Positions 3,812 to 6,207 of a stretch of 64,000 nt of DNA are shown here, one piece after another; position 1 is the first letter of the stretch, and the number at the start of each line of letters is the position of its first letter. Under the pieces are notes generated by a model. The model made no database searches and was not told the origin of the DNA. It saw only the letters and a list, made by a program, of their open reading frames with translations. Position numbers and translations under genes: made by a program. Origin of the DNA: Leptolinea tardivitalis (lineage in GTDB: Bacteria > Chloroflexota > Anaerolineae > Anaerolineales > Anaerolineaceae); assembly GCF_001050275.1 (NCBI RefSeq), contig NZ_BBYA01000009.1, forward strand, positions 124,001 through 188,000, given 5' to 3'.

Positions 3812-3841
3812 AGGGAGATGCGGCTCTCCATAGCACGTAAA

Positions 3842-3878
3842 ATAAAAAAAAGGCGGAGTGTTCCTGCTCACTCCGCCT
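3842..3878 (-). terminator. Rho-independent terminator
   Basis: A perfect 10-bp stem (AGGCGGAGTG / CACTCCGCCT, 3851-3860 and 3869-3878) with an 8-base loop, followed on the minus strand by eight T. It ends the transcript of the gene at 3898-4383. Confidence 0.9.
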
Positions 3879-3897
3879 CCTGTATGACTGTGATGGA

Positions 3898-4383
3898 TCA
3901 ATCGGTATCCGCTTGATCCAGGCAGGGACAATCATACCGGTTACCCTGGAATGAGGATCTTCTTCCCATGCCAAAGCCGCGCTGTTTCATCCAATCGGCC
4001 TGGTCCTGGGTAATCGTTCCATCTTTTACCGCCTGATCAATGACCTGGGTGCGGACATCGTTCATCATTGTTGTGAAATTTTCTGCCGTGATCCCTTTTG
4101 AAACCGCGATCTGGTACATGGATTCACCTTTATTCAGGCGGGATTCCAGATCATTGGCAGACATATTCAATTTTTCTGCCATTGCGGCCGTCATTTTGTC
4201 ATCCAGGAGACCGCCATCATACGAATAACCGCGTCCGCCCATCATCCAGCCGCGGCTGCCCATCATTCCAAATCCATTGAACCGGCTATTATTAAATTGT
4301 GAATTGGCAAACCAGTATCCAACGGCTCCGAAAAGGACGAATAACACAATCCCGGTGGCAGCACCAATAAGTATTTTCTTCAT
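3898..4383 (-). CDS. Small membrane-anchored protein, DUF2680-like
   Basis: 161 residues with one N-terminal membrane segment (about residues 4-23, ILIGAATGIVLFVLFGAVGY), then a Gly/Met/Arg-rich stretch and a helical domain (KMTAAMAEKLNMSANDLESR onward) ending in a Gln/Gly-rich tail. The helical part has the pattern ITAENFTTMM then DGTITQDQADWMKQRG seen in DUF2680/YckD-like exported proteins of bacteria. The start at 4383 is chosen because AAGGA stands five bases before that ATG; an in-frame GTG four codons upstream lacks a well-placed ribosome-binding site. The protein most likely sits outside the membrane. Its function is unknown. Confidence 0.7.
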   Translation of the reverse strand: MKKILIGAATGIVLFVLFGAVGYWFANSQFNNSRFNGFGMMGSRGWMMGGRGYSYDGGLLDDKMTAAMAEKLNMSANDLESRLNKGESMYQIAVSKGITAENFTTMMNDVRTQVIDQAVKDGTITQDQADWMKQRGFGMGRRSSFQGNRYDCPCLDQADTD

Positions 4384-4626
4384 TTTTTCCTTCACTTTCC
4401 AAATTTTTTAGGTTTTGAGTTCCTGTTATTGGAAATAGTAGCCGGGTTATGTGAAGAAATTATGAAGAATGAGAAATATATTCAAACTGCTGAATCATGG
4501 AGTGTTATAAATCGTCATGGAATTATGGAGAATTATGGAGATTGTCCACAAAGCGAACTTTGCAGTTGCAGAATTAATCAAAAATCCCGAAACTGTTATT
4601 GTGAATCGATGAGCAAAGAGGTAATC

Positions 4627-4968
4627 ATGGGAATGCAGGCAATCAGTTCAATATCTTCAAGCGGAATTTCTGCAACAGCGCAGGCTTTGACTCAACGTGT
4701 GTCTTCAGGCAACAAAACTGGTGGAGGAGGTGGAGCGGCTAAAACCAGTTCTGCCTCTGGAAGCAGTTCTTCCTCTGAAAGTTCAACAACCTATGACCCC
4801 ATGGATTTGAATAAAGATGGTATTGTATCTCCAAGTGAAAGGGCAATCTATCTGCTCAGACATCCGGAAAAAGCCAATAACCAGAACAATGCGCAGACCT
4901 ATTCAAGCCAGGGAACACAGACTGATCAGACGACCAGCCTGAGTGGTTTGATCAATTTATCTGCCTGA
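4627..4968 (+). CDS. Small Ser/Gly-rich protein with one EF-hand-like loop
   Basis: 113 residues starting at ATG 4627, which has AGAGG seven bases upstream; the open frame extends further 5' but the upstream part has poor coding character and no ribosome-binding site. The N-terminus (MGMQAISSISSSGISATAQA then LTQR) is followed by a low-complexity Gly/Ser region and then DPMDLNKDGIVSPSERAIYL, a dockerin/EF-hand-type calcium loop (D-x-N-x-D-G-x-V-x-x-x-E). It ends LSGLINLSA. There is no signal peptide. The next gene (5196-5513) shares its N-terminal pattern and C-terminal ending, so the two are probably diverged paralogues. The role is unknown; calcium binding is inferred from the loop. Confidence 0.6.
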   Translation: MGMQAISSISSSGISATAQALTQRVSSGNKTGGGGGAAKTSSASGSSSSSESSTTYDPMDLNKDGIVSPSERAIYLLRHPEKANNQNNAQTYSSQGTQTDQTTSLSGLINLSA

Positions 4969-4989
4969 TTTGAAATAAACAACCCAATG

Positions 4990-5043
4990 ATCCTCGAACC
5001 CTTCGGCGAGGATTGCTTCACATTACCTCTCCTGATCAGGAGA
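4990..5043. other. Two hairpins between the paralogous small genes
   Basis: 4990-5013 forms a 7-bp stem (ATCCTCG / CGAGGAT). 5028-5043 is a perfect 16-bp palindrome (TCTCCTGATCAGGAGA). Neither is followed by a T tract; they may help stabilise or process the transcript. Confidence 0.5.
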
Positions 5044-5047
5044 AATG

Positions 5048-5080
5048 AACACCCTTCCGCCAAAGGGTGTTTCATTTTCT
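5048..5080 (+). terminator. Probable terminator after the EF-hand gene
   Basis: A 9-bp stem AACACCCTT / AAGGGTGTT (5048-5056 and 5063-5071) with a six-base loop, followed by TCATTTTCT. This separates the two small paralogous genes into different transcripts. Confidence 0.7.
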
Positions 5081-5195
5081 AAAAACACTGTTCTTTGTGG
5101 CACGAATCGTGTAAATTTAATGGAATAGTGGAGTTCTTTCAGGTGATTTGGTTGGTATAATCAATAAAGAAACCAGAATCACAGGCGGGGTTTAG

Positions 5196-5513
5196 GTGGA
5201 GATTCGGGCTATTACAAGGGTAAATTCTTACAGTCCCTCTGTTACAGCGCTGGGAGTAACACAACGGTTGGCTGCCGGCGTCAAACCTGATAGAGGCGGG
5301 ACGGTAGTTTTGCCTTCTGATTCCTCCACGGCTATCATTGTTTACAACCAACCAGAACTTCAGACAAGAAAATCCTTCACAAATCGGGATCTTCTGCAAC
5401 AACTTTCCAGTGCTGATACACTGGAGGATGATTCAACATTGCAGGCACTCCTGAATCTGGCTGAAGATGAATATGCCGGAGGATTTTTCGGCATCATTGA
5501 TCTGTATGCCTGA
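5196..5513 (+). CDS. Small protein related to the preceding EF-hand gene
   Basis: 105 residues from a GTG start at 5196, with GGGG a few bases upstream. The N-terminus MEIRAITRVNSYSPSVTALG then VTQRLAAGVK matches the preceding protein in the pattern M-x3-AI-x4-S-x3-S-x-TA-x3-TQR-x3-G-x-K, and the C-terminus FFGIIDLYA matches its LSGLINLSA. The middle is different: it has no calcium loop but a segment NRDLLQQLSSADTLEDDSTL. There is no signal peptide or membrane segment. The conserved ends and variable middle suggest both proteins are recognised or assembled by the same machinery. Function unknown. Confidence 0.55.
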   Translation: MEIRAITRVNSYSPSVTALGVTQRLAAGVKPDRGGTVVLPSDSSTAIIVYNQPELQTRKSFTNRDLLQQLSSADTLEDDSTLQALLNLAEDEYAGGFFGIIDLYA

Positions 5514-5796: not shown

Positions 5797-6207
5797 CTAT
5801 CCCTCTTTGGGACCGGTATAAACTACTTCCATCAATAACCGGTCAGGGGTTTCAAACATTACCTGGTAGTAGGTGGAACCCGGACCGCTGAATTCAGGGC
5901 GGTGACGGGGTGTTTCAAACAGGGCCGGAATGCCGCGTTTTTTGAGATAATCCACGGCTTCATCAACATCAGCCTGTTTCTTAACACCGATGCCAATATG
6001 GTTGACACCCACTCCATCATAATCATTGGCATGGTCTTTCAATGGAGCACCGAACCACAGGCTGCCGCCATTTTCATCGCCAACACCCAGCATGTTCGGA
6101 TCGTCATAGAGCACAGCCCATCCCAGAAAAGTGAACAGGTCTTTGTAGAACCCGAGGTTCTTAACGTCAACCCATGCGACAATGTGACTGAAAGTCGATT
6201 TTTCCAT
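5797..6207 (-). CDS. VOC (glyoxalase/bleomycin resistance) family protein
   Basis: 136 residues, the normal length for a two-motif VOC protein. Visible are FSHIVAWVDVKNLGFYKDLF at the N-terminus, with the first metal-ligand His at 8, and GVGVNHIGIGVKK at about 65-77, the start of the second beta-alpha-beta-beta-beta unit, then YYQVMFETPDRLLMEVVY with the Glu ligand near the end. The substrate is unknown; the family ranges from glyoxalases to dioxygenases. It is the intact counterpart of the relic at 433-838. It has its own terminator and a striking palindrome just upstream, so it is probably a monocistronic, regulated gene. Confidence 0.85.
   Translation of the reverse strand: MEKSTFSHIVAWVDVKNLGFYKDLFTFLGWAVLYDDPNMLGVGDENGGSLWFGAPLKDHANDYDGVGVNHIGIGVKKQADVDEAVDYLKKRGIPALFETPRHRPEFSGPGSTYYQVMFETPDRLLMEVVYTGPKEG

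What the first reader, a model, noticed from the sequence alone, without database searches (positions are those of the whole stretch)
4627..5513. Paralogous small proteins with conserved ends and different middles
The two adjacent proteins share M-x3-AI-x4-S-x3-S-x-TA-x3-TQR-x3-G-x-K at the N-terminus and a G-hydrophobic-I-x-L-x-A ending, but one carries a Gly/Ser-rich part and a calcium loop and the other does not. Neither has a signal peptide. Fixed ends with a variable centre suggest recognition by common machinery such as a leaderless secretion or assembly system. The genes are separated by three hairpins and a terminator.
Basis: seen in the sequence. Interest (0 to 1): 0.55.

Follow-up and report, generated by a model that had tools for sequence, protein, structure and literature searches.

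The report
Leaderless calcium-loop protein and decayed twin
Two neighbouring small genes in an uncultured Anaerolineae-type bacterium that encodes flagella make related proteins with alike ends; one keeps a calcium-binding loop and the other has lost it, and both belong to a scattered set of unexplained proteins that may be exported without a normal signal.

Summary
P1 (4627-4968) and P2 (5196-5513) are alike at both ends far beyond shuffled sequence, and sister species repeat it. The middles are not unrelated, though: G065 P1 and G064 P2 align without gaps over 57 columns through the calcium loop, so P2 is a paralogue with a decayed EF-hand; only the linker is free. Among three sister P2 proteins the first 34 columns are 28-31 of 34 identical, the centre 3-8 of 35-36. 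Window P2 is a mosaic: P1-like leader, P2-like tail. P1 belongs to a sparse set of leaderless proteins with one C-terminal EF-hand, in Anaerolineae, Desulfuromonadota and Proteobacteria, related to NCBI's XopAW family but not matching its cut-off. The genome has a large flagellar cluster; 10 of 12 genomes with a relative have FlhA. Two FlhA-less genomes keep the gene, a flagellated one has it broken, and no sigma-28 promoter precedes P1 or P2, so flagellar export is plausible, not shown. P1-type genes share an upstream direct repeat.

The parts
4627..4968 (+). P1: leaderless 113-aa protein, Gly/Ser-rich linker, single EF-hand-like loop, hydrophobic tail
   Evidence: in the model 27 of 113 residues reach pLDDT 70-90, in blocks 51-80
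4627..4716 (+). P1 leader (first 30 residues), shared with P2
   Evidence: 0 of 20,000 shuffles; first-12-residue profile also matches proteins of other phyla
4804..4839 (+). P1 EF-hand-type loop DLNKDGIVSPSE (ligand positions D,N,D,E)
   Evidence: alignment A5
4942..4965 (+). P1 C-terminal tail SGLINLSA
5196..5513 (+). P2: leaderless 105-aa paralogue; loop decayed in its orthologues and not recognisable here
5196..5285 (+). P2 leader, closer to P1 than to P2 orthologues of sister species
   Evidence: N32 scores 52 (P1) and 34.5 (G065 P1) against 19 and 16 (P2 of G065, G064)
5487..5510 (+). P2 C-terminal tail FGIIDLYA
   Evidence: 10, 6 and 9 of the last 15 columns identical to P2 of G065, G066, G064
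4524..4541 (+). direct repeat TATGGAGAATTATGGAGA, 10-base period, about 100 bases before P1: putative operator
   Evidence: only match in the whole genome, reversed control 0; 0 of 1,000 shuffles; same element before G065 P1, G128 and G135 genes
4990..5072 (+). three hairpins after P1, the last terminator-like
3898..4395 (-). neighbour divergent from P1: small protein with a hydrophobic N-terminus (my reading) and a sub-threshold DUF2680 match
   Evidence: 24.5 bits, cut-off 25
5797..6207 (-). neighbour: glyoxalase/VOC-like protein (name by my reading, not tested); also borders the locus in G065 and G066

Best explanation
P1 and P2 are tandem paralogues of a leaderless protein family with one C-terminal EF-hand (shown: homology and loop; inferred: Ca2+ binding, disorder outside the loop). 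P1 keeps the loop; in P2 orthologues its ligands are lost, and P2 survives as a partner or variant whose ends, not its centre, are under selection (shown in three sister species). In the window's species P2's leader is P1-like, by conversion or convergence (inferred). Most likely mechanism, inferred and not shown: the Ser/Ala-rich leader is an N-terminal type III export signal, P1 and P2 leave the cell through the flagellar export gate that this genome encodes, P1 binds Ca2+ and folds outside, and the short hydrophobic tail serves docking or assembly. P1 transcription is set by its own direct-repeat operator, not by sigma-28.
For: Homology: P1xP2 0 of 2,000; G065 P1 x G064 P2 score 73, 0 of 2,000; 57 ungapped columns through the loop; the P2 profile finds G065's P1 at E 0.008. 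Loop decay: D,N,D,E becomes D,S,E,H / G,S,Q,Q / N,T,Q,Q. Fixed ends in P2: at protein level, since fourfold sites are only 6/16, 9/17 and 6/16 identical. Mosaic P2. Leader shared across phyla: a 12-residue profile from P1 and P2 alone is beaten by 0 of 2,714 background N-termini for G065 P1, G396, L084 and L085 second proteins, G135 (read from its second Met) and L088; by 1 for G065 P2, 10 for L089, 16 for G057 (L086 and the first EF proteins of L084 and L085 were not put in). Type III link: large flagellar cluster, XopAW matches of the longer relatives (61.2 and 61.9 bits, cut-off 120; L084's first protein passes at 147), FlhA in 10 of 12 carriers, flgD next door in L084. P1 model: block means of pLDDT 45-55 outside residues 51-80. 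Operator.
Against: G128 and G135 have intact longer relatives and no FlhA; flagellated G125 has a broken copy. Within the family 3 of 5 carriers have FlhA against 22 of 147 genomes (hypergeometric 0.024), but by genus the excess vanishes (2 of 3 against 15 of 40, 0.31). 18 of the 22 family genomes with FlhA over cut-off have no P1-type match (one of the 22, G004, is a partial match of 39.5 bits). No sigma-28 site with up to 3 mismatches before P1 or P2 of the window, although exact sites stand before flgM and a flaG-like gene; two-mismatch sites precede P2 of G065 and G066, three-mismatch sites precede G065 P1 and the G057, G128 and G135 genes. Type III signals are said to lack a conserved sequence (PMC9307174, passages seen), whereas P2's N-terminus is strongly conserved in sister species. 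P1's EF-hand is under every Pfam cut-off; Ca2+ binding is untested.
Confidence: 0.42

Rival explanations
1. P1 is a cytosolic Ca2+ buffer or sensor and P2 a partner that has lost Ca2+ binding; neither is exported. The shared ends are interaction segments for each other or a common partner, and a response regulator acting at the 10-base direct repeat sets P1 level.
For: Kept in FlhA-less G128 and G135; own operator; neighbour with a sub-threshold DUF2680 match, and in L084 an LTXXQ/metal-resistance protein and, by my reading, a two-component pair, as in an envelope or metal stress regulon; the strongly conserved P2 N-terminus fits a binding surface better than a type III signal.
Against: No confident structure besides the loop region; one EF-hand only, where sensors usually pair them (established knowledge); relatives recur in FlhA-bearing genomes of several phyla.
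Confidence: 0.36
2. P2 is a precursor-like substrate of the D-Ala-D-Ala-ligase-like ATP-grasp enzyme encoded next to it in two sister species: conserved N-terminal leader, variable core, conserved end, as in ribosomal peptide natural products.
For: In G064 and G066 the ATP-grasp gene lies directly downstream on the same strand; N-terminus 28-31 of 34 identical, centre 3-8 of 35-36 among the three sister P2 proteins.
Against: No match to that enzyme in the window or in the 14 kb held of the G065 locus; close orthologues in G004 and G005 have no P2 in the 13 and 11 kb held around them; the second half of P2 is homologous to the EF-hand half of P1.
Confidence: 0.08
3. The leaderless relatives are exported by a MacAB/HlyD-type tripartite pump, since Desulfuromonadota loci encode one beside them.
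For: HlyD-family and MacB-like genes follow the relatives in L084; genes that read alike follow in L085.
Against: By my reading of the ORF lists, without a domain search, none stands beside P1/P2, beside the Anaerolineae relatives or in the DNA held of L086, L088 and L089.
Confidence: 0.05
4. The similarity is chance or composition (Ser/Ala/Gly-rich ends).
For: Parts are of low complexity; P1 x G065 P2 is not significant (878 of 2,000).
Against: 0 of 2,000 shuffles for P1xP2 and for four other cross pairs of the eight tested; both genes sit at one syntenic locus in G065, in swapped order.
Confidence: 0.02

Closest known systems
XopAW family type III secretion system calcium-binding effector (NCBIfam NF041410)
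   Same: EF-hands with Ser/Pro/Gly-rich linkers; Anaerolineae relatives L004 and L006 score 61.2 and 61.9 bits, L086 41, L088 46.3, Sulfuriferula L089 19.3; L084's first EF protein passes at 147.
   Different: P1, P2 and their G065 orthologues give no match at E 0.1, nor does the G396 protein at E 0.01; L004 and L006 are under the cut-off of 120. P1 lacks the N-terminal EF-hand pair of L004-L006. That the family is named after plant-pathogen proteins is recalled, in line with the Xanthomonas papers listed; no effector role is implied here.
Sulfuriferula 80-aa protein L089:5971-6210
   Same: P1's layout in short form: Ser-rich leader, YDKMDTNKDGTVTTAEEQSYKLKHP, tail GSNIDVTA.
   Different: No paralogue seen beside it and other neighbours.
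Desulfuromonadota 'MSISAISS' proteins L084:8864-9583 and L085:7150-7710
   Same: Same leader and EF-hand subtype.
   Different: Extra repeated middle part; tails end in TYA; L084 has the loop twice.
Dockerin type I / canonical EF-hand (Pfam PF00404, PF00036, PF13202)
   Same: DxNxDG loop.
   Different: Single loop; P1 and its G065 orthologue are under every cut-off.
YjfB-type putative motility proteins
   Same: Recalled only: short leaderless proteins with a tail like that of L089 and P2.
   Different: Not tested by sequence; no Pfam match of P1, P2, L089 or the L093 neighbour beyond P1's weak EF-hand.

Membership tests
XopAW family (NCBIfam NF041410) | score over the curated cut-off of 120 bits | tested here: not met
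   P1, P2 no match at E 0.1; L004 61.2, L006 61.9 bits; only L084's first EF protein passes, 147 bits
XopAW family (NCBIfam NF041410) | secretion by a type III system | not testable with these tools
   genome has FlhA and a flagellar cluster, nothing more
EF-hand calcium-binding protein | 12-residue loop with acid/amide ligands at 1, 3, 5, 12 and Gly at 6 | tested here: met
   met by P1 and G065 P1; not met by P2 of G064, G065, G066; Pfam score under cut-off
EF-hand calcium-binding protein | binds Ca2+ | not testable with these tools
   needs a binding experiment
P1/P2 paralogous family | similarity beyond composition, in independent pairs | tested here: met
   of 8 cross pairs 5 at 0 of 2,000, two at 3 and 21 of 2,000, one not significant (878)
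Flagellar export substrate | co-occurrence with FlhA | tested here: inconclusive
   10 of 12 carriers; without: G128, G135; broken copy in flagellated G125; genus-level test 0.31
Flagellar export substrate | sigma-28 promoter or place in the flagellar cluster | tested here: not met
   window on contig C9, FlhA on C11
RiPP-type precursor with ATP-grasp | ligase gene adjacent in the members | tested here: not met
   adjacent in 2 of 4 genus genomes only

The most novel reading that the evidence does not exclude
A cross-phylum set of leaderless proteins is marked by a bipartite tag: an N-terminal M-S-I-S-x-I-S-S-like leader and a C-terminal [LIVM]-[DN]-[LIV]-x-[ASV] tail, with exchangeable centres (EF-hand, decayed EF-hand, repeats). 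The tail is used even by an unrelated protein encoded divergently beside a P1-type gene (L093:673-1122), so it would be a recognition or assembly tag for an export machine of flagellated bacteria, and P2 would be a loop-dead member kept for its tags.
Probability: 0.18. Interest if true: 0.7.

Novelty: new variant of a known kind. Interest (0 to 1): 0.42.

Why it matters
Small leaderless EF-hand proteins recur in bacteria without a known role, and the best annotated relatives are called type III effectors although relatives occur in genomes from quite different bacteria. This locus offers a clean pair, loop-intact and loop-dead, with orthologues whose ends are fixed and centres free, so export, Ca2+ binding and the role of the tail can be tested separately.

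Tried and rejected
Chance similarity: rejected. Module swap with an unrelated middle: rejected, the second halves align. Phage or plasmid origin: no plasmid match for P1, the G065 P2, L085's second protein or the L093 neighbour; the 8 viral loci found with P1 match over 16-50 of 113 residues, the loop or little more, from one pattern; none with P2. RiPP reading of P2: kept as a minor rival. Sigma-28 control: not found before P1 or P2. Further paralogues in the genome: P1 finds only itself and P2, the latter at E 0.998. P2 outside the genus: P2 alone matched 1 of 147 family genomes, its own; its profile matched 11 of 400 order genomes at E 0.1, three of the genus (G000, G065, G066) and eight weak ones (E 0.02-0.095), which I took as noise. 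Of 7 family genomes matching P1 at E 0.01, G102 and G133 were dropped (stops inside, E 0.003 and 0.007). The P2 model is uninformative (mean pLDDT 44.6). YjfB kinship is recalled and was not tested. Literature: ten papers hold the word XopAW (listing); of four papers I saw passages only (PMC8951399 a table row, PMC10574481, PMC5826079, PMC9307174). Searches listed no paper that I recognised from title and abstract start as dealing with this family; that is no proof that none exists.

Full report
What is there. P1 (4627-4968, 113 aa) and P2 (5196-5513, 105 aa, GTG start) are adjacent on the + strand between a divergent small protein gene (3898-4395, sub-threshold DUF2680) and a convergent glyoxalase-like gene (name by my reading). 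The window lies at G000:C9:124001-188000 of a 3.69-Mb, 15-contig genome.

Is the similarity real. Against composition-keeping shuffles P1xP2 scores 69 (mean 28.0, sd 4.9; 0 of 2,000), the start-anchored first 30 residues 54 (0 of 20,000), the last 12 residues 15 (87 of 20,000). Of eight P1-type x P2-type pairs five reach 0 of 2,000, two reach 3 and 21, and one (P1 x G065 P2) is not significant (878). Start-anchored, the shared leader is confined to window P2: no P1-type leader matches the P2 leaders of sister species without gaps (3,828-5,133 of 20,000). A tail profile from the two P1 proteins alone puts P2's tail above all 2,714 background ends, but the P2 tails of G064, G065 and G066 are beaten by 2, 16 and 115; one from three sister P2 tails alone is beaten by 5 for P1 and 47 for G065 P1. 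The background is six-frame ORFs of at least 50 aa, most of them not genes.

What the relation is. G065 P1 and G064 P2 align over 57 columns without a gap, through the loop: DLNKDGTVTASE against DLSAEGINLSRH. Ligand positions 1, 3, 5 and 12 are D,N,D,E in P1 and G065 P1, and D,S,E,H / G,S,Q,Q / N,T,Q,Q in P2 of G064, G065 and G066. P2 is therefore a paralogue with a decayed EF-hand, and the really free part is the linker.

Sister species. With the G065 P2 as query, all 4 genus genomes match at E 10, G064 and G066 at 1e-32 or better, the window's own P2 only at E 0.51, so its orthology rests on synteny and tail. P1 is found in G065 only, not in G064 or G066, and there the order is P2-P1. G064's contig ends just upstream of P2. 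Among the three sister P2 proteins the first 34 columns are 28-31 of 34 identical, columns 35-70 only 3-8 of 35-36, columns 71-100 12-16 of 29, the last 15 columns 7-12 of 15. Fourfold-degenerate sites in the conserved leader are 6/16, 9/17 and 6/16 identical, so the constraint is on protein. Window P2 departs: its leader scores 52 with P1 and 34.5 with G065 P1, but 19 and 16 with P2 of G065 and G064, while its last 12 residues score 36 and 33 with those two, 12 with G066 P2, 24 and 15 with the P1 proteins. The leader seems to have been converted or to have converged.

Wider relatives. In the family (147 genomes) a profile finds longer relatives in G057, G128 and G135, with an N-terminal EF-hand pair, plus a broken copy in G125. 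A loop-subtype profile (A5) matches 4 of 400 order genomes, one of them new (G396). One scan of genome contigs with a single short pattern gave 9 loci: the three longer Anaerolineae genes again, a further Anaerolineae (L087), and Desulfuromonadaceae, Geobacteraceae, Thalassospira, Adiutrix and Sulfuriferula; it certainly undercounts. The Sulfuriferula protein of 80 aa has P1's layout in short form, tail GSNIDVTA. A first-12-residue profile from P1 and P2 alone is beaten by none of 2,714 background N-termini for G065 P1, G396, L084 and L085 second proteins, G135 (from its second Met) and L088, by 1 for G065 P2, 10 for L089 and 16 for G057. The G396 gene is divergent from an unrelated leaderless protein ending SGSMIDLKS; its tail is beaten by 2, 3, 5, 14 and 5 of 2,714 ends with the five training sets tried, while its leader does not match (2,155 of 2,714 or similar). 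I noticed that protein before the test, so this is a lead. The G396 EF protein itself lacks such a tail. With a profile of all six genus tails, the tails of other relatives rank 12 (L089), 28 and 45 (L084), 72 (L088), 77 (L006), 89 (L085), 192 (L004) and 1,729 (L086) of 2,604: the tail is not general.

Known names. The longer Anaerolineae relatives match NCBI's XopAW family at 61-62 bits, cut-off 120; L084's first EF protein passes at 147; P1 and P2 do not match. They are relatives of that kind, not members by the curated test.

Export. A 60-kb stretch of contig C11 holds a large flagellar cluster with FlhA; the other flagellar names there (export, rod, basal body, flagellin, FlgM-type) are by my reading, and I did not see the hook protein in the stretch. 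FlhA is over cut-off in 22 of 147 family genomes, one of them a partial match. Carriers of relatives with FlhA: G000, G065, G057, G396 and the genomes of L084, L085, L086, L087, L088 and L089; without: G128, G135, so 10 of 12; the L087 gene is cut by its contig end. Within the family this is 3 of 5 (0.024), by genus 2 of 3 (0.31), and 18 of the 22 FlhA-bearing family genomes have no P1-type match. G125, flagellated, has a broken copy. No sigma-28 site with up to 3 mismatches lies before P1 or P2, while exact ones lie before flgM and a flaG-like gene; P2 of G065 and G066 have two-mismatch sites, G065 P1 and the G057, G128 and G135 genes three-mismatch ones. In L084 flgD lies just downstream of the XopAW-type gene; L085 lacks it. 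So export through the flagellar gate is the leading idea and unproven.

Regulation. About 100 bases before P1 stands TATGGAGAATTATGGAGA, the only match of TRTGNAGANNTRTGNAGA in the genome (reversed control 0). The element also precedes the G128 and G135 genes (0 mismatches) and G065 P1 (1 mismatch), with 0, 0 and 1 of 1,000 shuffles as good; no site within 2 mismatches precedes the G057, G396, L084, L085, L086, L088 and L089 genes or the three P2 genes tested (G000, G065, G066). The pattern was read off these sequences first, so the shuffles overstate its significance; its uniqueness in the genome does not depend on that. The period of 10 bases suggests an OmpR-like regulator (inference).

Intergenic structure. 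Three hairpins follow P1, z -2.88 for the fold, the third terminator-like, so P1 and P2 are probably separate transcripts.

Structure. In the P1 model 27 of 113 residues reach pLDDT 70-90, in blocks 51-80, with helices 69-78 and 80-83 after the loop; the other blocks average 45-55. The P2 model is not usable.

Noticed in passing
window 4524-4541: 10-base-period direct repeat, unique in the genome and present before P1-type genes of G065, G128 and G135: probably an operator of an unknown regulator.
   Followed up: partly
L093:673-1122 (G396): Unrelated leaderless 150-aa protein, divergent from a P1-type gene, with the same kind of C-terminal tail, SGSMIDLKS.
   Followed up: partly
L020:6220-7350 and L018:3273-4358: D-Ala-D-Ala-ligase-like ATP-grasp gene directly after P2 in G066 and G064; close orthologues without P2 nearby in G004 and G005.
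   Followed up: partly
L084 and L085: Two different leaderless EF-hand proteins in one locus with an LTXXQ-type protein, a presumed two-component pair and MacAB-like genes; flgD only in L084.
   Followed up: no
L078 (G125:C10): Broken copy of the EF-hand gene in a flagellated genome, while FlhA-less G128 and G135 keep it intact.
   Followed up: yes
window about 4445-4470: Related repeat with 11-base period (TGTGAAGAAATTATGAAGAA) upstream of the DUF2680-like gene, with similar stretches in G065 and G066 (by eye).
   Followed up: no
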